Assembly: GCF_002210295.1 (NCBI RefSeq)
Contig: NZ_MWQH01000002.1
Coordinates: 124,001-188,000 of the forward strand
Origin: Fibrobacter sp. UWB5
GTDB lineage: Bacteria > Fibrobacterota > Fibrobacteria > Fibrobacterales > Fibrobacteraceae
Direction: 5' to 3'
Length of the DNA stretch: 64,000 nucleotides
The number at the start of each line of letters is the position of its first letter. Positions within the stretch are counted from its first letter, which is position 1. The notes below the pieces were generated by a model. That model saw only the letters and a list, made by a program, of their open reading frames with translations. It was not told the origin of the DNA and did not search any database. A program made the translations under genes and the position numbers. This document shows positions 19,575 to 63,403 of this stretch, in pieces.

Positions 19575-20393
19575 ATGCTAAAGAAATTTCTTTCAGTGTA
19601 TCTCCTTTTATCTGCTTGTCTTTATGCAACGGATTATGAGTGCATAGAGCTTTATGGAGATTATAGAGTTGTAATTGAAGGGACTAAAAATACAGCGAAT
19701 CAAGTCAGTACAAAACGTTATTCAAGCTATAAATCCTGCAATCGTGATTTGGAAAATTACCTAAATGGTAAAAAGACTCCTATCGCATACGAGTGCATAG
19801 AACTTTATGGGGATTACAGAGTCGTGCTCGAAGGAACTAAAAATCCAGCAAATCAAGTTAGCTCAAAACGCTACTCAAGCTATAAATCCTGCAATCGCGA
19901 TTTGGATAATTACCTAAATGGTAAAAAGACTCCCGTTGAATATGAGTGCATAGAACTTTACGGGGATTTTAGAGTTGTGCTTGCGGGAACTAAAAATCCG
20001 GCAAATCAAGTTAGTTCAAAACGTTATTCAAACTATAAATCCTGCAATCGCGATTTGGATAATTACTTAAATGGCAAAAAGACTCCCGTTGAATACGAGT
20101 GCATAGAACTTTATGGAGATTTTAGAGTCGTGCTTGCGGGAACTAAAAATCCGGCAAATCAAGTTAGCTCGAAACGCTACTCAAACTATAAATCCTGCAA
20201 TCGCGATTTGGATAATTACTTAAATGGCAAAAAGACTCCTGTTGCATACGAGTGCATAGAACTTTATGGGGATTACAGAGTCGTGCTCGAAGGAACTAAA
20301 AATCCAGCAAATCAAGTTAGCTCATTGCGTTATACCAGCTATGGGTCTTGCAATAAAGCCTTGAATGAATACTTGTCTAAGCAAAGACAATAA
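19575..20393 (+). CDS. Secreted protein of five 51-residue repeats
   Basis: 272 residues. A signal peptide (MLKKFLSVYLLLSACLYA) is followed by five consecutive units of about 51 residues. Each starts YECIELYGD and contains GTKN.ANQVS, RY..Y.SCN and YLNGKKTP. Each unit has two conserved cysteines (positions 3 and 35), suggesting a small disulfide-bonded domain. Units 3 and 4 are nearly identical also in DNA, so copies have expanded or been homogenised recently. It is AT-rich and convergent with the late operon. A prophage moron or lysogenic conversion gene is plausible; no family recognised. Confidence 0.75.
   Translation: MLKKFLSVYLLLSACLYATDYECIELYGDYRVVIEGTKNTANQVSTKRYSSYKSCNRDLENYLNGKKTPIAYECIELYGDYRVVLEGTKNPANQVSSKRYSSYKSCNRDLDNYLNGKKTPVEYECIELYGDFRVVLAGTKNPANQVSSKRYSNYKSCNRDLDNYLNGKKTPVEYECIELYGDFRVVLAGTKNPANQVSSKRYSNYKSCNRDLDNYLNGKKTPVAYECIELYGDYRVVLEGTKNPANQVSSLRYTSYGSCNKALNEYLSKQRQ
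19634..20390 (+). repeat. Five tandem 153-bp coding repeats
   Basis: Each unit encodes YECIELYGD...KKTP. Starts are near 19637, 19790, 19943, 20096 and 20249. The last copy is divergent at its end. Confidence 0.85.
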
Positions 20394-48864: not shown

Positions 48865-49151
48865 AATGGGACGTAAGCTAGTAAAAAGTTGGCTCCTAGC
48901 GTGCAAACAGTTGTTGCTTAATGAATGAATAAAACCTAATTTGGTTAGGTTTAATAAGTGTTTTTTTACAAAAAAAGCTCTCTTTGACATTTTGTGACTT
49001 GAAATTGAATATAAATTGAAAAAAATCAAAGAAAATTCAAAAAAATCATGAATGTGTTAAACAGAAAAATTCTATCTATAACGGCGAACCCCAAGTGCTG
49101 CTTGGGTTCCGGTCAATTCGTGCCCCTTTTGTCCCTGTAAGGTGTTTTTAA
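48865..49151. promoter_or_regulatory. Control region ahead of the helicase / restriction-modification block
   Basis: AT-rich, 287 bases. Contains ACCTAA-TTTGG-TTAGGT (48934-48950) followed by TTTAAT, the third copy of the promoter-spacer palindrome. Further right are ATTGAATATAAATTG (about 49004) and a hairpin GAACCCAAG/CTTGGGTTC (about 49084-49111). Confidence 0.55.
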
Positions 49152-52073
49152 ATGGAAGCCAACGAACAACAGCGTCTCGTCATTGAGTCAACTGAATCGC
49201 CTCTTTTGGTGATTGCTGGCCCAGGTGCGGGAAAAACTAAGACTCTTGTTGATAGGGTTCTCCATTTGATTATAGACAAGAATGTTCCCGCTGAAAACAT
49301 CCTTGTGGCTACATTTACCGAAAAAGCAGCCAAGGAACTCGTTACCCGTATTTCAAATCAGGCATTGAAACTTGGGAAAACAGTGAATATTTCCGATATG
49401 TATGTGGGAACGCTCCATTCGATTTTCTTGCGTTTCCTTGAAGAATACAGACAGCATACAGGCTTAAAGCGGAACTACAGGGTTCTGGACGATTTTGAAC
49501 AGAAATACACGATTTATCAAAATCACAAGCTGTTTGACAAAATTCCGAATATTGGTTTACTCACCAACGATTCCTTTGGCTGGAATTTAGCGGATAGAAT
49601 TGCAGGGCTAGTAAACAAGGTCGCAGAAGAAAATCTTGACTTGGATAAAATGTCCCAATGCAAGGAAAGCGCCCTTTTGCCTATCCTTGCCGAAGTGACT
49701 AAGGTTTATCGTGCAATGTTGAATGCCGATAATTGCCTGGATTTTTCTCTCATTCAGACGCACATGTGGAAAATGCTGGATGATGAGTATGTCCTTGAAG
49801 ATATTCGCAAGCGCATCCAGTACATGATGATTGATGAATATCAAGATACCAATCGAATCCAGGAAAACATCCTTCTAAAGATTGCCGCGCCAGCGAATCG
49901 CATCTGCGTTGTGGGTGACGATGACCAGGCTCTTTACCGTTTCCGTGGTGCTACGGTAGAAAACATCCTTCGTTTTCAAGATAAATTCCCTGCTGGTGTA
50001 TGTAAGAAAATTGAGCTAACAAAGAACTATCGCTCGCACCCCGATGTAATTGATTTCTATAACCACTGGATGCAGAATACCTATGAGGATAGAAATGAAA
50101 CGGGGTCATGGCAGGGCAGAAACGGGACAGAACGTTACCGTCACGAAAAAGTTATTGAAAATGCGGGAAAACAAAACCGCGAAAATACGTCATATCCAGG
50201 CGTAATCAAGGTAATGGGTGATGGCATTGAAGCCTGGTATGAAAGGTTCTACGAGTTCATTTGCAGGTTGAAAGAATCTGGGAAATTGAAGGACTACAAT
50301 CAACTTGCGCTGCTCTGCCGTTCTGTCAAGAACGAGCGTATTGCAGGGCTTGCAAGGTTCCTCGAGTCCAAGGGCGTGCCAATTTTTTCGCCCCGTTCGG
50401 ATATGTTCTTTGAACGTCGCGAAATCCGCCTTGTCATAGGCGCCTATGCGTTCCTGTTCCCAGACCTGGTCAATGCATATCTTAGAACGAACAACTCTTC
50501 AGAAAGAGCTGTTTGGCGATACTACGATGAGTGTGCCGTGTATTTCGGCAATGAACTGCGAAGCAATAAGGAGAATAAGCGGCTTCAAGTCTGGGCTGTT
50601 TCTAAGTCCAGGGAGCTGGCTTTTTTAAAGGAGAATACGAATTATACCTTCGCAGACCTTTTCTATGAAATGCTGCAATTCCCTTTGTTTAGCAAGATGG
50701 TGAATGTTGACCTCAATAGCGGAATGCAGGATTTACGGCCCATTTACAATCTTGCCCTGTTCAGTCGCCTTATTACCAAGTTTGAGTATTTGAACAATAT
50801 CATCGTGTTCAAGCCAGAATCCTTGAAGAAAGATGTAAAGGCCCTGTTCAATTACTACCTGAATTTCCTTTATGACGGCGGCATCGGGGAATATGAAGAT
50901 TTCGACATGATAACTCCGAGTGGATGCGTGAGTTTCATGACAATTCACCAGAGTAAGGGATTGGAGTTCCCGATTACCTGTGTTGCATCGTTGGAGTCGC
51001 ATCCGACTAGGAATTTTACGCAGATTGATGAAGATATTCAGAATTTCTATTACGGTGAACAAAGTTATGAGCCGTTGGAAAGAATGAAATACTTTGATTT
51101 TTGGCGCCTCTTCTACACGGCTTTTAGCCGAGCACAGAATTTGCTGGTGCTGACTGGTGTGGACAATACGGAAACAAGAGGAAGGTCAGAACATTCAAGC
51201 CCATCAAGATATTTCGCGAATGTCTATCATCGTGCGAAAAATTGGGCAGAAATTTTTGATGGTGATAACTGCCTTGCCGACTTTGATACGGTGAAAGCAG
51301 CCAATGTGAAGCATGAGTATTCTTTCACCAGTCATATTTTGCTTTATGAAAACTGCCCTGTTCAGTATAAGTTTTTCCGTGAGCTGGAATTTACGCCCGT
51401 AAGAACGACTGCCGTCATGTTCGGTACGCTTGTTCATCAGACGATTGAAGATGTGCATAAGGCTGTTTTGGAAGGCCACCCAGAAAGGGTCACGGACGAC
51501 AACATTTCTTTCTGGATGCAGGAAAACTATAAGCAGCTTGCAAAAATGAACGGCTTGTATCTGCGTGAGTCTGCTTTGAGGGTGATTAAGAAGCACGTAA
51601 AAAACTATGTGGAATTTGCCCAAAGGGACTGGAGTAAAGTTAAGGACGCGGAAGTTCCCGTAACGCTTCAAAAGGACGATTATATCCTTGAAGGAAAAAT
51701 AGACCTTATTCGTGGTGAGAAAGATTCGGTCGAGATTCTGGACTTTAAAACAGAAAAGAAGCCGAACATGAATAGCGAAGATGGCCGAGAAAAGTTACGC
51801 CGATATAGGCGCCAGCTGGAAATTTACGCCCATATAATCGAGCAACGGTATGGAAAGAAGGTTAGTAAGATGCACCTTTACTATACTGGGGCGGAAGATG
51901 AAAGCCCGTTTATCACCTATGACTTTAATAGAACCTCCATTGTACGAACCATTGAAGAGGTAGATGGAGTTGTAAACAAGATTGAAAACAAGGAATTTAA
52001 GATGGACGCTCGCAAGCGTTGTGAAAAGCTATGCGGTGGATGCGACCTCAAGAATTTCTGCAACAGCTTATAA
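49152..52073 (+). CDS. UvrD-type helicase fused to RecB/AddB-like nuclease
   Basis: 973 residues. Superfamily 1 helicase motifs: IAGPGAGKT (21-29), MIDEYQDTN (near 227), GDDDQALYRFRGA, TKNYRSHP, TIHQSKGLEF and YTAFSRAQ. The C-terminal PD-(D/E)XK nuclease shows GTLVHQTIED, GKIDLI and VEILDFKTEKK. Cys near 735 together with C961-x2-C964-x5-C970 form an AddB/Cas4-like iron-sulfur site. It should unwind and degrade DNA ends. It heads a tight operon with type III Mod and Res, suggesting that it finishes off restricted DNA; that coupling is inferred. Confidence 0.92.
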   Translation: MEANEQQRLVIESTESPLLVIAGPGAGKTKTLVDRVLHLIIDKNVPAENILVATFTEKAAKELVTRISNQALKLGKTVNISDMYVGTLHSIFLRFLEEYRQHTGLKRNYRVLDDFEQKYTIYQNHKLFDKIPNIGLLTNDSFGWNLADRIAGLVNKVAEENLDLDKMSQCKESALLPILAEVTKVYRAMLNADNCLDFSLIQTHMWKMLDDEYVLEDIRKRIQYMMIDEYQDTNRIQENILLKIAAPANRICVVGDDDQALYRFRGATVENILRFQDKFPAGVCKKIELTKNYRSHPDVIDFYNHWMQNTYEDRNETGSWQGRNGTERYRHEKVIENAGKQNRENTSYPGVIKVMGDGIEAWYERFYEFICRLKESGKLKDYNQLALLCRSVKNERIAGLARFLESKGVPIFSPRSDMFFERREIRLVIGAYAFLFPDLVNAYLRTNNSSERAVWRYYDECAVYFGNELRSNKENKRLQVWAVSKSRELAFLKENTNYTFADLFYEMLQFPLFSKMVNVDLNSGMQDLRPIYNLALFSRLITKFEYLNNIIVFKPESLKKDVKALFNYYLNFLYDGGIGEYEDFDMITPSGCVSFMTIHQSKGLEFPITCVASLESHPTRNFTQIDEDIQNFYYGEQSYEPLERMKYFDFWRLFYTAFSRAQNLLVLTGVDNTETRGRSEHSSPSRYFANVYHRAKNWAEIFDGDNCLADFDTVKAANVKHEYSFTSHILLYENCPVQYKFFRELEFTPVRTTAVMFGTLVHQTIEDVHKAVLEGHPERVTDDNISFWMQENYKQLAKMNGLYLRESALRVIKKHVKNYVEFAQRDWSKVKDAEVPVTLQKDDYILEGKIDLIRGEKDSVEILDFKTEKKPNMNSEDGREKLRRYRRQLEIYAHIIEQRYGKKVSKMHLYYTGAEDESPFITYDFNRTSIVRTIEEVDGVVNKIENKEFKMDARKRCEKLCGGCDLKNFCNSL

Positions 52074-52084
52074 GGAATCAAACC

Positions 52085-53821
52085 ATGGCAAAATCACAGA
52101 CTGAAATGTTTGAGTTTAATCGGGAACCAATAAAAGGGTTTCCTGAGCTGCGGTGGGCCGGTAAACGCCCTTTTACAGGAACATCTTATTATCCTGCTCA
52201 ACTAAAAGAAACTCATGGACATCCTTCTGATGATGGCTGGATGAATAAGTTATACTGGGGTGATAATTTACAGGTCATGAGCCATTTGTTAAAGGAATGT
52301 AGAGGTCAGGTCGATTTGATTTATATAGACCCTCCCTTTGATTCGAAGGCTGATTATAAGAAAACCATTTCTTTGAGAAATCAAAGTGCAGAAAGTGATT
52401 CTTCCAATTTTGAAGAAAAACAATATGGCGATATTTGGACAAATGATGAATATCTCCAATTTATGTACGAGCGTCTAATTCTCTGTAGAGAATTGTTGAG
52501 TGATAAGGGAAGCATTTATTTGCATTGTGATTGGCATAAAAGCCATTATTTACGCAACATAATGGATGAAATCTTTGGAATTGAGTGTTTCCAGAACGAA
52601 ATTTCATGGTTGTATAAAACAGGTGGAGCATCCAAAACTTGCTGGGCAAGGAAACATGACACACTGCTTTTTTACTCAAAAAAGAATAGTGGGTTTACGT
52701 TCAACCCATTGCAAGAACGGTCATATATGATGCATAAGTATGGCTTTAAAAAAAGTGACTTTAAAATTGACCCTGAAAATGGATTGCAGTATTCAATGGT
52801 ATATTGCCGTGATGTATGGGAAATGCCTTCTGTTGGTTCTGCAACAGACGAACGAGTAGACTATCCGACACAAAAACCAGAAGTTCTTCTTGAACGAATT
52901 ATAAAGGCGTCGTCTAATCCTGGTGATGTTGTGTTTGACTGTTTTATGGGCAGTGGAACAACCCAAACTGTAGCAATGAAACTTGGCCGAAAATTTATAG
53001 GTGCAGATATAAATTTGGGTGCTATTCAAACAACAACAAAAAGACTAATAAGCACAGCGTCTAAATGCATGGCAGACAAAAATTTACTATCCATTCAGAC
53101 ATATACAGGTTTTGAAGTCTACAATGTAAACGATTATGATTTCTTCCGTAATGAACTTGAAGCGAAAAAGTTGATAATCGAGGCGCTAGGAATGCAAGCC
53201 CTCCCAGAAAATAGTCTCTGGGATGCGGAGTTTGATGGTCGAATGGTTGCCATTCTTGGCATAAACAGAATTGCTACAGCTAGCGAGTTTGAAAAGATTG
53301 TTGCCAACATTGATATTTCCAGTTGGCAAAAGAAACAAAATGAAAATCCAGGCAAACCAGTTGAAAAGATTACATTTGTTTGCATGGGCCACGACCCGAA
53401 TTTGGAGGCGATGTTCCATGAAAAAATGGCCAGTTTGGGTTTTGTTGTTGATTTGGAAATAATCGACATCCTTCGTGACAAAAAGGAGTTGACATTTAAA
53501 CGCGATGCTGACGCCAAAATATCTATTGCTAATGGAAAACTCTCTATTGAGCAATTCTATCCGATGAACTTGCTTCAGAAATTGAGCTTCGAAAAGCAGG
53601 ATGTTGAAGATTGGAAGGAACTTGTAGATAGTGTCATGATTGACTGGAATTATGATGGTGTTGCGTTCGCTCCTGCACTTACTGATATTCCAGCGAAGAA
53701 TGCTCTTGTAAAGGGAATTTATAACGTTCCCGAAGATGCAGGCACAATCCATGTGAAAATTACGGACCTCATTAGCGAAAGCTGGGAAGGCTCCTTTAGC
53801 GTAGAAGGGAGTAAGCTCTAA
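52085..53821 (+). CDS. Type III restriction-modification methyltransferase (Mod), adenine-specific
   Basis: 578 residues from the ATG at 52085, 11 bases after the helicase stop. Motif IV DPPF is at 82-85 and comes before the SAM motif FDCFMGSGTT (near 284), the beta-class order typical of type III Mod proteins. The C-terminal 200 residues probably contact the Res subunit. It methylates an asymmetric site on one strand at N6-adenine. The recognition sequence cannot be predicted. Confidence 0.9.
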   Translation: MAKSQTEMFEFNREPIKGFPELRWAGKRPFTGTSYYPAQLKETHGHPSDDGWMNKLYWGDNLQVMSHLLKECRGQVDLIYIDPPFDSKADYKKTISLRNQSAESDSSNFEEKQYGDIWTNDEYLQFMYERLILCRELLSDKGSIYLHCDWHKSHYLRNIMDEIFGIECFQNEISWLYKTGGASKTCWARKHDTLLFYSKKNSGFTFNPLQERSYMMHKYGFKKSDFKIDPENGLQYSMVYCRDVWEMPSVGSATDERVDYPTQKPEVLLERIIKASSNPGDVVFDCFMGSGTTQTVAMKLGRKFIGADINLGAIQTTTKRLISTASKCMADKNLLSIQTYTGFEVYNVNDYDFFRNELEAKKLIIEALGMQALPENSLWDAEFDGRMVAILGINRIATASEFEKIVANIDISSWQKKQNENPGKPVEKITFVCMGHDPNLEAMFHEKMASLGFVVDLEIIDILRDKKELTFKRDADAKISIANGKLSIEQFYPMNLLQKLSFEKQDVEDWKELVDSVMIDWNYDGVAFAPALTDIPAKNALVKGIYNVPEDAGTIHVKITDLISESWEGSFSVEGSKL

Positions 53822-56565
53822 TGGCTAAGAAAAAAGAGTCTGTAATTGAAACGCCGTTTTACCGTTATCTTTGGAATTTCTATTCAAAGAATAAAGGGGC
53901 GATTCGAAGGCACTATAAGGATTTGACTAAGAAAATTCTTGAAAATGCAAATCCCGATAATGCAGGCGCCTTCCTCAGAAGACCTCAATATGAGGCTTTT
54001 GAAATGTATGTGTTCCTTAAAGAATATCTTGATAATCGCTCTCTTGCGGATATTTTCGATGATTGGCGTTATAATCGGGGTGATTTCTGCCTCAATGCAA
54101 CCGATTTGCATGATATTGAAGGAGACCTCTTTGCATCAAGGGATGCAGCATCATTTGATGGAGCTATTAAGCAGTTAAGAAACATTCAGCAGGATTATTC
54201 CAACTATATTTTCTCGCTCACTATGGGAACTGGTAAGACCATTCTCATGGCGCTTTGCATCTTTTACGAATTTCTTCTGTCGAATAAATTTCCCAAGGAC
54301 AATCGCTTTTGCAAAAACGCATTAGTGCTAGCACCTGACACAACTGTTTTGCATTCACTCAAGGAAATTCAAACATTTGACAAGTCAAAAATTTTGGGAG
54401 ACCAGTATGCAAATCTTCTGGATTCTTTCATAAAGTTCCATTTCCTTGATAGTGACGGAATATCGCTTAGTACAGCGGACAATTCCACCCATAATTTGAT
54501 TATTTCTACCAGCCAGAAAATCATTCTCAAAAAGAAACATACGCCCGATTCTGCCGCTGAATCTCTGTTCAAGGATTCCTGGGAAGCAAATACTCAAAAT
54601 AGCGTGAACGCTGATTTATACCAGTTGGACGACGAAAGTGAGCTTATGGCAAATCAGCGTTATACAAAGCTCACACGTTTGCCCCAATTAGGCATCTATG
54701 TGGATGAAGCTCACCATATTGGTGATGAATCCTTAAAAGGCGCCGTTGACCGAACGAGCAAAAAGAGCTTGCGATTGACAATCGACAATCTTGCAGAAGA
54801 ATTGAAGATTTCGGGTTCGAGTGTTGTAGCCTGTTATAACTTTACAGGAACCCCCTATGTAGACAACCATTTGATGCCAGAAGTTGTTTACGAATACGGA
54901 TTGAAAAGTGCAATCCACAACGGCTATCTAAAGGAAGTTGACATTTTCGATTACGATAATGTCAAGTCTGCGGAATTTGTAAGCGAAACAATAAGGCGTT
55001 TCGTTTCGACGCATCGAAATAAGGATGGTGAATTTAAACGCTATGAGGGAATGCTTCCCAAAATAGCGTTTTATGCAGCAAGCATTGAAGAACTTGAAAA
55101 GGAACTGAAACCTGCTGTTGAAAATGCCGTCACCAGCAATGGACTATCCATTGATTCTATTTTGGTAAATGTTGGCGATGACAAATATACCAAGAACGAC
55201 GATATTCGTGAGTTCCAGCTTCTTGACTCATCATCGTCGGAGAAACAGTTCATTCTTCTGGTAGGTAAGGGTAAGGAAGGTTGGAACTGCCGCAGCCTTT
55301 TTGCGGTGGCCCTATTCCGCAAGCCCAAAAGCACGATTTTTGTCCTACAAGCGACAATGCGCTGTTTGCGTTCCATAACGCAAGAACAACTGCGTGGAAA
55401 CGTGTTCCTTTCTTCCGAGAACAAAGAAATTCTCGCAAACGAGTTGCGAGATAATTTCAGAATGTCTGTGGAAGACTTGACTTCAAAACCCTCCCAGTCA
55501 AAACCCGAACGCCGCATTTATATTCGCGAAAAAGTCCCTGTGACGGTTTATGAACGGGTGCCAGAATTTGTTATCACAGAATTAAAACCAGGTCATTTCC
55601 GTCTTTTTGATGAAGACTTCGAAGAATCGAAGTATCACAAAACAGTGGGAAAACACTCTCTTACGAATATAGACAGTGCTACAATTCGTCAAGATGTTCA
55701 ATCTGAAGGCGAACGCCACTTTACCGAATTAAGCCTTGTCGCAGAGTTATCCATCTTCTTGACTCAACACGAAAAAGACCGCGATGATTCCTCCAAAAAT
55801 GTAGCCCGTCATTCTCCTGTAGAAATCCGTGACCTTCTCGATAAGGTTGAAGAAGGAATATCTGTCATCCTGGAAAAGGTAAATTACTCCAATGACATTC
55901 TTTACGATTATGTGATTCCGAAGCTATTCTCAAAGCTGTATGAGGTTAAGTACGAGGAAAGCGAACCGCGTCCAGTCACAAGATATATCGTTAAAGAACC
56001 CCCGTTTGAGAATGTAGATGAATCTGGTCAAAGATTCTACAGGATGCGCTTTGATGATGATGATTTCGTAAGCGATGAATCCACGCTTTACTCGAAGTAC
56101 AATCAAATTAGTGGCAATAAGAAAAGTTTCGACCTTTCCGGCTATGGATTTGATTCGACTTCCGAGAGGGCTTTCTTTGACAGAAATCTTTTCAATAACG
56201 AGAAGATAAAACATATTTGGTTTACTGGTATGCTGACAAATGGACAGTCGGATTTTTATGTTCGCTACATAGACCCGGAAACACATTCGTTGCGTTCCTA
56301 TTATCCAGATTTTCTTGTGGAAATGAATACAGGAGAGTTCTACATTGTTGAAATCAAGGGCGAACACCTAGTTGATACACCAACGACTCAGGCGAAGGTG
56401 GATTATGCGCAGCAGATGTTCAAATCGCATAAGATGCACTATGTATTTATTCCAAGTAAATATGCAAATATGATTCTGCAAGAATTTATTGAACAAAGTG
56501 CAGAAAATTTTGGAATGAAGTCGATTGATGCACCGAGTTCAAGTCTTAATTCTGTATTTACTTAG
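53821..56565 (+). CDS. Type III restriction enzyme Res subunit
   Basis: 914 residues. Superfamily 2 ATPase motifs TMGTGKT (134-140) and VDEAHHIGD (near 295), FTGTPY and a later GKEGWNCRSLFAVALFR segment. The C-terminal nuclease is DFLVEMNTGEFYIVEIKGE (near 830), D-x(n)-E-x-K. ATP-driven sliding or diffusion between head-to-head sites leads to cleavage. The start overlaps the mod stop by one base (TAATG), so 1:1 translation coupling is likely. Confidence 0.92.
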   Translation: MAKKKESVIETPFYRYLWNFYSKNKGAIRRHYKDLTKKILENANPDNAGAFLRRPQYEAFEMYVFLKEYLDNRSLADIFDDWRYNRGDFCLNATDLHDIEGDLFASRDAASFDGAIKQLRNIQQDYSNYIFSLTMGTGKTILMALCIFYEFLLSNKFPKDNRFCKNALVLAPDTTVLHSLKEIQTFDKSKILGDQYANLLDSFIKFHFLDSDGISLSTADNSTHNLIISTSQKIILKKKHTPDSAAESLFKDSWEANTQNSVNADLYQLDDESELMANQRYTKLTRLPQLGIYVDEAHHIGDESLKGAVDRTSKKSLRLTIDNLAEELKISGSSVVACYNFTGTPYVDNHLMPEVVYEYGLKSAIHNGYLKEVDIFDYDNVKSAEFVSETIRRFVSTHRNKDGEFKRYEGMLPKIAFYAASIEELEKELKPAVENAVTSNGLSIDSILVNVGDDKYTKNDDIREFQLLDSSSSEKQFILLVGKGKEGWNCRSLFAVALFRKPKSTIFVLQATMRCLRSITQEQLRGNVFLSSENKEILANELRDNFRMSVEDLTSKPSQSKPERRIYIREKVPVTVYERVPEFVITELKPGHFRLFDEDFEESKYHKTVGKHSLTNIDSATIRQDVQSEGERHFTELSLVAELSIFLTQHEKDRDDSSKNVARHSPVEIRDLLDKVEEGISVILEKVNYSNDILYDYVIPKLFSKLYEVKYEESEPRPVTRYIVKEPPFENVDESGQRFYRMRFDDDDFVSDESTLYSKYNQISGNKKSFDLSGYGFDSTSERAFFDRNLFNNEKIKHIWFTGMLTNGQSDFYVRYIDPETHSLRSYYPDFLVEMNTGEFYIVEIKGEHLVDTPTTQAKVDYAQQMFKSHKMHYVFIPSKYANMILQEFIEQSAENFGMKSIDAPSSSLNSVFT

Positions 56566-56763
56566 AACTTTATCTATTTCCTCTACAATGGGCTGGGCGT
56601 TCTCACGCTTGGCCTTGTTTTTTTCTTTTTTTTCTTCGTCAAGATGCATTAAGAGTTCGACGACCAGTCTATGAATGTGGGTGAGCGTAGGCTGGTCGTT
56701 TCGTGCTATCGCGCGAGGCATACTAGCGATGGCTGATTTAAGATTTGTCATTTTGTAGAACAT
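56539..56763 (-). CDS. Small phage protein, unknown function
   Basis: 74 residues, helical, lysine/glutamate rich (HLDEEKKEKNKAKRENAQP). GGGAGC lies 6 bases upstream of the ATG. Its 3' end overlaps the res gene end, convergent. Confidence 0.55.
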   Translation of the reverse strand: MFYKMTNLKSAIASMPRAIARNDQPTLTHIHRLVVELLMHLDEEKKEKNKAKRENAQPIVEEIDKVLSKYRIKT

Positions 56764-57295
56764 AATAGCTCCCTATATGTTGATTGGTTAGGGAATGATA
56801 ACTTATGATTTCATTTTGCCGTGCAAACAAAAGTTGGCATTTTGTGAAAAAAAAGGAGGCGCCTCACTTGACAGCTTCTGCAATTCGCAAGCAATCGCAG
56901 CCGTTCCCGCCGTTTCGCTTTTGTTCGCTGTGCAAAACGCTGCAAGCGCCTCTTTGCTCCGGGCCGTTAAAATGTTCACCCGATGGCGCCGGATAGCGTG
57001 CAAGACGCTGCACGACCTTGCAGGGGGGGGGGCTAAAGTTGCGAAATTTCGCATTTTTCGAAAGTGTCACGAATTGACAGAATAATTTTTTATTTTTTCC
57101 GCTGCTCAAGTCGGGACGGAAAAAATCCCCTTCGATATCTATATCGCCCTCAAGCTCATTTTCCTTTTTTACCGCGCTGTTGCGTGAGTTGAGTATGAGG
57201 TTTTTATATATCAATATCTCCACAATTACGGAGTGAGTCCTACTCATACTCCTACTGTTAATCATTCTCCTATTACTACTACTGATATAATAGGG

Positions 57296-58544: not shown

Positions 58545-59396
58545 ATGAATAATGCAATAGCTACACAATCCAATCCGCAGCAGGTCAACGACGCCCTGCT
58601 GCTTGACTACCTCACCGCGACGACGCCGGGTCTCAACGACCACCAGGTCAAGCAGTTCCTCGCGGTTTCCATGGCGTTCGGGCTGAACCCGTGGAAGAAA
58701 GAAGTTTATGCCGTCACGTACAACAATCGCGACGGCGGAAAGACGATGAGCATCGTCACGGGGTACGAAGTGTACCTCAAGCGTGCCGAAATGAACCCCA
58801 ACTACGACGGCTACGAGACGGAATGGCGCGGCGAGTTCGTCAGGGGCAAGTCCACCAAGAGTGGCAAGAACGGCAACTACAGCGTGGATGCGCTGGTTCC
58901 CAAGGACGGGGACGTGAGCTGCATCTGCCGCGTTTTCCGCAAGGACAGGAAGGTTCCCGTCAAGTGCGAGGTGTTTTTCAGCGAGTACGACCAGGGCAAT
59001 TCCATGTGGCAGAGCAAGCCCAGGGTCATGCTTGAGAAGGTCGCGATTGCGCGTGCGTTCCGCCTCGCTTTCCCCGTAGAGTTCGGCGGGATGCCCTATG
59101 AGAGCGCGGAGCTTTCGCCGGAACAGGGACTTGACCCTGAAAAGGAAATCAAGATTGAGGAAGCGGTGGAAAGGGCGGAAGCCCCGAAGCCGGAACAGCA
59201 GCCGCAGGAACACACGGGCGACCGCAAGGCGAAATTCATCGAGGTGTGCAACAAGATGATTCCCGCCGCGATTAAGGACACGCTCAAGGCGTACAACTGC
59301 CGCAGCCTGGAAGAACTGGGCCTTGACCAGATTGACGGATTCTACCGCGAGGCGAAGCGCGTGGAGGCCGGAATGATGCAGGAGGTGGAGTTCTAA
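58545..59396 (+). CDS. RecT/Bet-family single-strand annealing protein
   Basis: 283 residues. The Bet/RecT pattern is clear: LTATTPGLNDHQVKQFLAVSMAFGLNPWKKEVYAV, VTGYEVYLKRAE, MLEKVAIARAFRLAFPVEF and GGMPYESAEL. It pairs complementary single strands in phage recombination. The acidic tail carries extra residues. Translation of the next gene overlaps its stop (ATGG). No RecE/YqaJ exonuclease is next to it. Confidence 0.9.
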   Translation: MNNAIATQSNPQQVNDALLLDYLTATTPGLNDHQVKQFLAVSMAFGLNPWKKEVYAVTYNNRDGGKTMSIVTGYEVYLKRAEMNPNYDGYETEWRGEFVRGKSTKSGKNGNYSVDALVPKDGDVSCICRVFRKDRKVPVKCEVFFSEYDQGNSMWQSKPRVMLEKVAIARAFRLAFPVEFGGMPYESAELSPEQGLDPEKEIKIEEAVERAEAPKPEQQPQEHTGDRKAKFIEVCNKMIPAAIKDTLKAYNCRSLEELGLDQIDGFYREAKRVEAGMMQEVEF

Positions 59397-62342: not shown

Positions 62343-62375
62343 CAAAATAAGCTCGCTTTCGCGAGCCTTTTTTAT
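62343..62375. terminator. Bidirectional terminator between lipoprotein and integrase genes
   Basis: AAGCTCGC-TTTC-GCGAGCCTT with A and T tracts on either side. Confidence 0.85.
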
Positions 62376-63403
62376 TTCTTGTTGAGAGCCTTTTCCAGGT
62401 CGTCTTGCAGCAGGTGACTGTAGGTGTCCAAAGTCTGGCGCACGTCTTCATGGCGCATCAACTGCTGGACGATTTTCGGGCCAACGCCGGAACGGATAAG
62501 GTTGGAGGCGAAAGAGTGTCTCCACTTGTGATTTGTCGCATCGTCGCTCTTATATCCCGCAGCTTCCACTGCAATTCGCAGCGTTTCGTTGCACCTGTCC
62601 GCATGGTCGAAACGGGCTGTCGCGAACATGCCGTCTTTCAGCTTGCCGTAGCGCTTGATTTCCGCCTTGAGGCGGTCGCTAATCGGGAGGAACGCTTCCT
62701 TGTCGCCTTTGCCGACGACGCGCATCTTTCCGTCCTCCTGGATGCACGACGGTCCAAATCGGCAAGCCTCCGCATGACGCAAACCAGCGAAAGCCATGAC
62801 CGACCAGAACAGTCTAAATTCCGGGTCGGGCGCGTTGTCGAGAATTTTTTCAATCTGGTCGGGAGTCCAGAACGCCTTGGCGCGTTTCGGAACCTTGGGG
62901 AACGCCACGTCGCGGAACGGGTTGTAGTCGCCCAGGTCGTAAATCTTAGCCGCCCACTGGCAGAACTGGCTTGTGCAGCGCACCATTTCGTGCTGGGACT
63001 TGGGCGCGTACCTTTCGGACAGCCACACCGCCCAGTTCGTCGCCTGTTCGGCATCGAAGCGCATGAGCGTCTTGATGCCGTTTGCGTCAAGCCATTCCCT
63101 GAATGTCTTGAGTCGGTACTTGTAAGCGAGGTGAGTCTTGGAGTCGTCGCCCTTGGACGCCGCGACGGAATCCAGGAACTTCGGGAGCGCCTCGTCGAAG
63201 CCCCTGTCCTTCGGCATGAGCTTGCGGCGGATTTCCTCGGGCATGAACCTGGCCGCGTTCATCATGTTCAGCCATTCCTGTGCGTCGCTCTTGCGCTTGG
63301 TTTTAAGGCTTATGTAGGAGAACTCGCCATCCTCCGCGATTCTCCCGTACCATGTAAGGTTGCCGCGATACTTGTACCGCTGCGATATGCTGTAGCTTTT
63401 CAT
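62372..63403 (-). CDS. int: Tyrosine integrase
   Basis: 343 residues. Catalytic set: Arg209 (AGLRHAEA), a lysine in the VVGKGDKEA turn, His292-x-x-Arg295 (NHKWRHSF), His318 (MRHED) and Tyr328 (DTYSHLL). An SAM-like core-binding domain and an N-terminal arm-binding part precede them. Placed at the right end of the prophage, 250 bases from the core. Matching arm repeats lie at 12200 and 63439. Confidence 0.96.
   Translation of the reverse strand: MKSYSISQRYKYRGNLTWYGRIAEDGEFSYISLKTKRKSDAQEWLNMMNAARFMPEEIRRKLMPKDRGFDEALPKFLDSVAASKGDDSKTHLAYKYRLKTFREWLDANGIKTLMRFDAEQATNWAVWLSERYAPKSQHEMVRCTSQFCQWAAKIYDLGDYNPFRDVAFPKVPKRAKAFWTPDQIEKILDNAPDPEFRLFWSVMAFAGLRHAEACRFGPSCIQEDGKMRVVGKGDKEAFLPISDRLKAEIKRYGKLKDGMFATARFDHADRCNETLRIAVEAAGYKSDDATNHKWRHSFASNLIRSGVGPKIVQQLMRHEDVRQTLDTYSHLLQDDLEKALNKK

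What the first reader, a model, noticed from the sequence alone, without database searches (positions are those of the whole stretch)
49152..56565. Helicase-nuclease joined to a type III restriction-modification pair
A UvrD-type helicase with an AddB/Cas4-like iron-sulfur nuclease is packed with mod and res (11-base gap, then TAATG overlap). The arrangement suggests a three-part defence unit in which Res cuts and the helicase-nuclease degrades the ends. I do not know a named system with exactly this trio.
Basis: partly seen in the sequence, partly recalled or inferred. Interest (0 to 1): 0.75.

Follow-up and report, generated by a model that had tools for sequence, protein, structure and literature searches.

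The report
Prophage-borne helicase-nuclease plus Type III restriction operon
A prophage carries a three-gene anti-virus operon (a DNA-marking enzyme, an ATP-driven cutter and a helicase-nuclease) that recurs across bacteria; the trio was predicted in 2017 but, as far as I found, never tested, and natural copies in E. coli now make it easy to test.

Summary
UvrD-Cas4 helicase-nuclease (49152-52073), beta-class Mod (52085-53821) and Res (53821-56565) form one operon with intact catalytic residues.

It is a real unit. I compared 36 related trios from several phyla. The helicase and its Res occur in the same 5 of 80 same-genus genomes and 4 of 369 genomes of another class; helicase and Mod in the same 3 of 5426 E. 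coli genomes. Helicase and Res distances correlate at r = 0.965. Other Res lineages checked lack the helicase.

It is probably defence. It fills a prophage cargo slot that in sister prophages holds a Type I R-M or an Ssp-like system. Two E. coli copies differ mainly in Mod's target-recognition domain.

It is not new in kind. Hudaiberdiev et al. 2017 (PMC5704561) reported UvrD-Cas4 beside Type III Mod/Res and predicted defence. Murray et al. 2021 (PMC8259958) described a parallel third gene in Eco86II; I located it and it is SNF2-type, unrelated.

New here: near-obligate linkage to one Res lineage that PADLOC barely scores, hotspot placement, recognition-domain exchange, and UvrD-Cas4 in the SNF2 slot of Eco86II-like systems. 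The degradation mechanism remains untested.

The parts
49152..52073 (+). UvrD-Cas4 helicase-nuclease, 973 aa (first gene)
49161..51251 (+). UvrD/PcrA-like SF1A motor region (about residues 4-700)
   Evidence: Pfam; PcrA/UvrD fold Z 25, rmsd 3.6 over 458 residues
51330..52064 (+). Cas4/AddB-like PD-(D/E)XK nuclease with four cysteines (residues 727-971)
   Evidence: PDDEXK_1; residues 716-973 match ACE1 (Z 15.0) and Cas4 (Z 13.8); residues invariant
52085..53821 (+). Mod, beta-class DNA methyltransferase, 578 aa (DPPF before FxGSG)
52610..52834 (+). Core of the hypervariable target-recognition region of Mod (residues 176-250)
   Evidence: mean pairwise identity 0.19-0.30 against 0.6-0.8 in the flanks; exchanged between E. 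coli copies
53821..56565 (+). Res, 914 aa: SF2 motor (GTGKT, DEAH) with C-terminal PD-ExK nuclease
56266..56448 (+). TnsA-like nuclease segment of Res (residues 816-876; D830, E844, K846)
56590..56615 (+). Terminator-like stem-loop closing the operon
   Evidence: consensus match only
48953..56848 (.). Prophage cargo slot; replaced in a sister prophage by an Ssp-like system, and at the same right edge in another by a Type I R-M system
62372..63403 (-). Prophage integrase (context)
   Evidence: phrog_1; 97-100% identical in sister prophages
58545..59396 (+). RecT-like annealing protein of the prophage (context)

Best explanation
This is a three-gene restriction-modification operon of the UvrD-Cas4 / Type III kind, carried as swappable anti-virus cargo by a prophage. 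Shown by sequence: three intact enzymes, one operon, a variable recognition domain in Mod only, and conserved linkage. Inferred: Mod reads a short asymmetric site and protects the host by methylation; Mod-Res detects unmodified sites and makes double-strand breaks with the Res nuclease; the UvrD-Cas4 protein loads on the broken or opened DNA and unwinds and degrades it, so that the invader cannot be repaired by recombination or religation. The helicase-nuclease is sequence-independent and works with whichever Mod specificity is present.
For: Conserved linkage: 29 distinct trios, all in the order helicase-mod-res on one strand, plus more. Helicase and Res in the same 5 of 80 genus genomes (hypergeometric 4e-8) and the same 4 of 369 genomes of another class (1.3e-9); helicase and Mod in the same 3 of 5426 E. 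coli. These figures ignore kinship among genomes. Distances helicase-Res r = 0.965, helicase-Mod 0.83, Mod-Res 0.83; best of 4999 permutations 0.44. Catalytic residues of all three invariant in 36-39 relatives except one Mod site in one sequence. Defence context: sister prophages with near-identical integrase carry an Ssp-like set (G101) or Type I R-M hsdR/S/M (G070) at the same place. Specificity exchange: E. coli VG888-46E9 and AH21 share helicase 95% and Res 97%, while Mod falls to 0-20% identity in the recognition region. Mod is closest among solved structures to Type III Mods including EcoP15I. Fold of the helicase-nuclease is UvrD plus Cas4, like AddA/RecB/AdnB machines that process DNA ends.
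Against: No activity has been measured. The host has its own AddA-like protein (37% identity), which could process ends already. In the analogous Eco86II system the third gene was not needed for methylation and was absent from an active partially purified enzyme (PMC8259958). A few intact helicase relatives (for example Annamia) have no mod/res beside them, so the protein can have other roles. Extra genes are often inserted between helicase and mod, so tight translational coupling is not required.
Confidence: 0.62

Rival explanations
1. The helicase-nuclease is a structural part of the restriction complex rather than a downstream scavenger: it is recruited by Mod-Res to unbroken DNA, acts as the translocating or unwinding motor, and cuts as it goes. 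Type III Res is a switch rather than a processive motor, so UvrD-Cas4 would supply real motor power.
For: Helicase-Res distance correlation is the tightest of the three pairs (0.965), as expected for partners that touch. Eco86II-like systems carry an SNF2 motor in the same 5' place, and Priestia and Athalassotoga carry UvrD-Cas4 there instead, suggesting a slot for a motor. Wilkinson et al. 2020 proposed a concomitant unwinding and degrading restriction enzyme for the Bad protein beside a Type III-like Mod (PMC7430649).
Against: Eco86II Mod-Res cut partially without the third protein (PMC8259958). No complex has been modelled or purified. Genes can be inserted between helicase and mod, never seen between mod and res in the aligned trios.
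Confidence: 0.25
2. The helicase-nuclease is a repair or recombination enzyme of the mobile element (a RecBCD-like helper for phage or plasmid) that only happens to lie beside mod/res.
For: Most copies lie on phages, plasmids or islands. Divergent relatives sit with DUF1351 and a DEDDh exonuclease in phage-like contexts.
Against: The same trio occurs on unrelated carriers: phages, conjugative plasmids, E. coli tRNA islands. Linkage is to one Mod/Res lineage, not to any phage gene. Sister prophages with the same replication genes lack it and have other defence genes in its place.
Confidence: 0.07
3. The third protein protects the cell rather than attacking: it repairs or clears host DNA breaks made by Res at unmodified sites, for instance after operon entry or recognition-domain exchange.
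For: Such a role would also give obligate linkage to Res and a mobile lifestyle.
Against: Hosts already have RecBCD/AddAB; a nuclease with a conserved active site is an odd protector.
Confidence: 0.06

Closest known systems
UvrD-Cas4 fusion with Type III Mod/Res (Hudaiberdiev et al. 2017, PMC5704561, Fig. 6)
   Same: Same protein architecture (UvrD fused to a pfam12705 Cas4-like nuclease), same neighbours, predicted defence role.
   Different: Whether this exact locus was in their set is not known.
Eco86II / BspHIV three-gene m4C Type III systems (Murray et al. 2021, PMC8259958)
   Same: Three genes with an extra ATPase 5' of mod, then res; widespread; role of the third protein unknown.
   Different: The Eco86II third protein is SNF2-type (DrmD-like), has no nuclease motif and no blastp similarity to UvrD-Cas4; its Mod (1040 aa) and Res (1126 aa) are another lineage.
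Bad, bacterial DNA2-like helicase-nuclease of Geobacillus (Wilkinson et al. 2020, PMC7430649)
   Same: Fe-S Cas4-like nuclease plus SF1 helicase, gene next to a Type III-like Mod; proposed to be a new restriction enzyme.
   Different: Described by its authors as DNA2-like, not as a UvrD-Cas4 fusion; no Res mentioned in the passage read. Not compared by sequence here.
AddAB / RecBCD / AdnAB end-processing machines
   Same: UvrD-like motor with RecB-family nuclease; best structural neighbours.
   Different: Those are two- or three-subunit repair enzymes; here one chain of 973 aa linked to mod/res.
Gabija (GajB)
   Same: UvrD-like helicase in defence; PADLOC's GajB models hit the motor region.
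   Different: No GajA (OLD-type nuclease) partner; matches cover only the shared motor domain; GajB lacks the Cas4 domain.

Membership tests
UvrD-Cas4 fusion family (PMC5704561) | N-terminal UvrD-like SF1 helicase | tested here: met
   Pfam 4e-65; PcrA/UvrD fold Z 25
UvrD-Cas4 fusion family (PMC5704561) | C-terminal pfam12705 Cas4-like nuclease with Fe-S cysteines | tested here: met
   PF12705 2e-23; Cas4 fold Z 13.8-15; cysteines invariant
UvrD-Cas4 fusion family (PMC5704561) | Neighbourhood with Type III mod and res | tested here: met
UvrD-Cas4 fusion family (PMC5704561) | Helicase domain falls in the published monophyletic clade | not tested
   Published tree not available here
Type III restriction-modification | Beta-class Mod (motif IV before motif I) related to EcoP15I Mod | tested here: met
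   DPPF 82-85, FMGSG 287-291; profile match to 4zcf 1.9e-31 and 6k0w 5e-33
Type III restriction-modification | Res with SF2 motor and C-terminal PD-ExK nuclease | tested here: met
   ResIII above Pfam cut-off (30.2 against 22.5); D830/E844/K846 invariant; EcoP15I Res 4zcf_C ranks second in Foldseek, E 9e-9, though with low TM
Type III restriction-modification | Res belongs by sequence to a catalogued Type III Res family | tested here: inconclusive
   PADLOC REase_III only 24.7 bits, none for the Phaeobacter relative; no solved relative by sequence
Type III restriction-modification | Needs two inversely oriented sites, ATP-dependent cleavage, single-strand methylation | not testable with these tools
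   Needs biochemistry and methylome data
BPTD_3080 family restriction endonuclease (NF046055) | Score above the curated cut-off | tested here: not met
   61 bits against 800; family loci lack the helicase and many have res before mod
Eco86II-type third gene | SF2 helicase-like ATPase without nuclease motif 5' of mod | tested here: not met
   Third gene here is SF1 UvrD with nuclease; no meaningful blastp similarity to the Eco86II SNF2 protein
Gabija | GajA partner next to GajB | tested here: not met
   Neighbours are mod and res
AddAB / RecBCD | Multi-subunit repair complex (AddA with AddB, or RecB with RecC/RecD) | tested here: not met
   No AddB or RecC/RecD partner in the operon; single-chain architecture

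The most novel reading that the evidence does not exclude
The trio is a distinct restriction machine in which a Mod-Res recognition pair recruits a processive helicase-nuclease that unwinds and degrades target DNA, with the third-motor slot filled by interchangeable engines (UvrD-Cas4 or SNF2) across at least two Type III lineages.
Probability: 0.3. Interest if true: 0.8.

Novelty: new member of a known kind. Interest (0 to 1): 0.52.

Why it matters
Classical Type III enzymes use ATP as a switch and make one cut near a site; they are not thought to degrade DNA. A conserved helicase-nuclease partner would turn a cut into destruction and could work where phages block RecBCD. The Res lineage is barely scored or not scored by PADLOC, so such systems are probably recorded as orphan methylases. 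The question raised in 2017, what UvrD-Cas4 does in defence, becomes directly testable because intact operons exist in three complete E. coli genomes, two of which differ mainly in the recognition domain.

Tried and rejected
Gabija and DRT-type helicase labels from PADLOC were rejected: they match only the shared UvrD motor. BPTD_3080 membership was rejected on score and locus order. Eco86II-type membership was rejected after locating that locus in E. coli NCTC86. Structural search of Res gave only general SF2 hits (EcoP15I Res, HsdR, RadD, Snf2) with low TM and moderate model confidence (pTM 0.49), and no row for its C-terminal nuclease; that is uninformative rather than negative. The first attempts at structure prediction used loci the tool does not accept. 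Full-text searches for experimental work on the trio found only the 2017 and 2020-2021 papers; subscription journals and preprints are mostly not held. Promoter scan was at chance level.

Full report
OBSERVATION. The helicase gene is 49152-52073 (973 aa), mod 52085-53821 (578 aa) and res 53821-56565 (914 aa). The gap helicase-mod is 11 bases with an AAGGA motif spanning the helicase stop, and mod-res overlap as TAATG. A terminator-like hairpin follows res at 56590-56615. Pfam gives UvrD-helicase, UvrD_C and PDDEXK_1 for the first protein, N6_N4_Mtase for the second, and ResIII with a TnsA-like nuclease segment for the third.

ANATOMY. AlphaFold models built on 17-18 relatives gave pLDDT 76 (helicase) and 72 (Res). 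The first 700 residues of the helicase match PcrA/UvrD (Z 25), and residues 716-973 match Cas4-family nucleases, including an Argonaute-associated Cas4 protein (Z 15) and Cas4 (Z 13.8); AddA, RecB and AdnB are the nearest whole-chain neighbours. Mod has DPPF before FMGSG (beta class) and its profile matches solved Type III Mods including EcoP15I. Res has no sequence relative of known structure; its motor resembles HsdR, EcoP15I Res and RadD, and its C-terminal D/E-x-K triad is invariant. Across 36-39 relatives all tested catalytic residues of the helicase, its nuclease and four cysteines, Mod and Res are unchanged apart from one Mod position in one sequence and one contig-truncated helicase. 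Both nucleases are therefore under selection.

CONSERVATION. tblastn with Res found 28 plasmid records, and the full-length hits are nearly all records that also hold the helicase. Annotated regions from Phaeobacter, Nitrosomonas, Spirosoma, Enterococcus, Vibrio, Tunicatimonas, Blastomonas and an Acutalibacteraceae phage all show helicase-mod-res in that order. Viral contigs gave about 17 more. In all, 29 non-identical trios passed length filters, and more came from genome searches. Within the genus, helicase and Res are in the same 5 of 80 genomes. In another class, helicase and this Res family are in the same 4 of 369; a fifth, distant Res (27% identity) has no helicase. In 5426 E. coli genomes helicase and Mod hit the same three. 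Hypergeometric values are 4e-8, 1.3e-9 and 4e-11; they assume independent genomes, which is not true.

Pairwise distances agree closely: helicase-Res r = 0.965, helicase-Mod 0.83, Mod-Res 0.83, each beyond all 4999 permutations. Permutation ignores relatedness, so this shows inheritance as a unit, not contact. The exceptions are instructive. The one Mod-Res pair found without a helicase (L121) has a Res that stops before its nuclease domain, and one locus with pieces of helicase and Res carries an internal deletion (L142). Cyanobacterial helicases without mod/res are partly broken (Geminocystis, Nostoc), but Annamia's is intact.

SPECIFICITY OF THE LINK. The helicase does not follow Type III systems in general. 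Among the BPTD_3080-family loci fetched none has it, nor do three distant Res loci. More divergent UvrD-Cas4 proteins (24-41% identity) have other partners: an Eco86II-like Mod/Res in Priestia and Athalassotoga, a DUF1351 protein plus DEDDh exonuclease, a fused SF2 helicase part, or a TmtA-like protein with ResIII.

DEFENCE CONTEXT. The operon is low-GC cargo (about 0.40-0.43 against 0.50-0.58 around it) in a prophage with head, portal, baseplate, RecT-like and integrase genes. Genomes of the same genus carry prophages with 97-100% identical integrase. In G101 the segment equivalent to 48953-56848 is replaced by a 12.1-kb block of SspA/B/C/D-like and other genes; in G070 the same right edge (56849) is followed by hsdR, hsdS and hsdM. 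The trio thus occupies a defence slot that other prophages fill with established defence systems. Elsewhere an OLD-family nuclease gene sits inside the operon (L233) and a Cap15-like gene lies nearby (L189).

RECOGNITION-DOMAIN EXCHANGE. Mod is conserved except residues about 176-250. In E. coli VG888-46E9 (tRNA-Leu island) and AH21 (selC island) the helicases are 95% and the Res 97% identical, while Mod drops to 0-20% in the middle and returns to 95% at the ends. This is the pattern of a restriction system changing its target, and the helicase and Res stayed almost the same through it.

PRIOR WORK. Hudaiberdiev et al. 2017 (PMC5704561) described the UvrD-Cas4 fusion, stated that its most common neighbourhood is Type III Mod and Res, and predicted a defence role. 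Wilkinson et al. 2020 (PMC7430649) proposed a restriction role for Bad, a DNA2-like helicase-nuclease beside a Type III-like Mod. Murray et al. 2021 (PMC8259958) reported m4C Type III systems with a third ATPase 5' of mod in over 500 genomes. I located the Eco86II locus in NCTC86 (inferred from the gene trio; not matched to a published locus tag): its third gene is SNF2-related, and the Mod and Res are 38% identical to those of the Priestia locus, which has UvrD-Cas4 instead. Klebsiella, Aeromonas and Blastomonas fulva loci have SNF2 in the 5' place and Conchiformibius has it 3'. So one Type III lineage can carry either engine, and one engine serves two lineages.

MECHANISM. Shown: operon, intact enzymes, conserved linkage, defence slot, recognition exchange. 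Inferred: restriction by Mod-Res followed by unwinding and degradation of broken DNA by UvrD-Cas4. A closer coupling, with UvrD-Cas4 as the motor of the complex, is the main rival. Nothing here separates them. The Eco86II finding that the third protein was absent from active enzyme warns that the third protein may only modulate the reaction.

VERDICT. The finding is real and correctly read in outline; it is a member of a kind described in 2017 but, as far as I could find, unnamed and untested. The additions here raise its value as a target for experiment.

Noticed in passing
L211:577-12699 (G101) and L213:1-11187 (G070): Sister prophages carry an Ssp/Dnd-like phosphorothioation set (with an SF2 helicase, a GHKL ATPase and a PLD nuclease) or a Type I R-M system in the slot occupied here by the trio: a prophage defence hotspot.
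   Followed up: yes
L210 (G103 contig 1, 204500-224499): A short derivative of the same prophage: integrase end joined directly to the head/portal part (window 61342 next to 25369), about 36 kb missing and the element inverted relative to the left host flank; possibly a satellite-like or deleted form.
   Followed up: no
window 19635-20354: Internal repeats of about 153 bp within the ORF 19575-20393, seen as offset matches to a sister prophage.
   Followed up: no
L027:6324-7064 and L034:11871-12638: A conserved 246-255 aa protein (59% identity between the two) without Pfam match lies between helicase and mod; other loci have different inserts there (L016, L020, L032, L233 with an OLD-type nuclease, L234).
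   Followed up: partly
L029:3776-8829, L139:3566-8616, L031: Divergent UvrD-Cas4 proteins sit between a DUF1351 protein (checked in L029 and L139) and a DEDDh exonuclease of about 460 aa, a different conserved set in phage-like contexts.
   Followed up: partly
L030:7642-11865: UvrD-Cas4 fused to an N-terminal SF2 helicase-like part resembling DpdF (1407 aa in one frame).
   Followed up: no
L140:8216-20787: UvrD-Cas4 relative followed by a TmtA-like protein, an HTH-IrrE protein, a Mod and a ResIII protein: a larger possible defence set.
   Followed up: no
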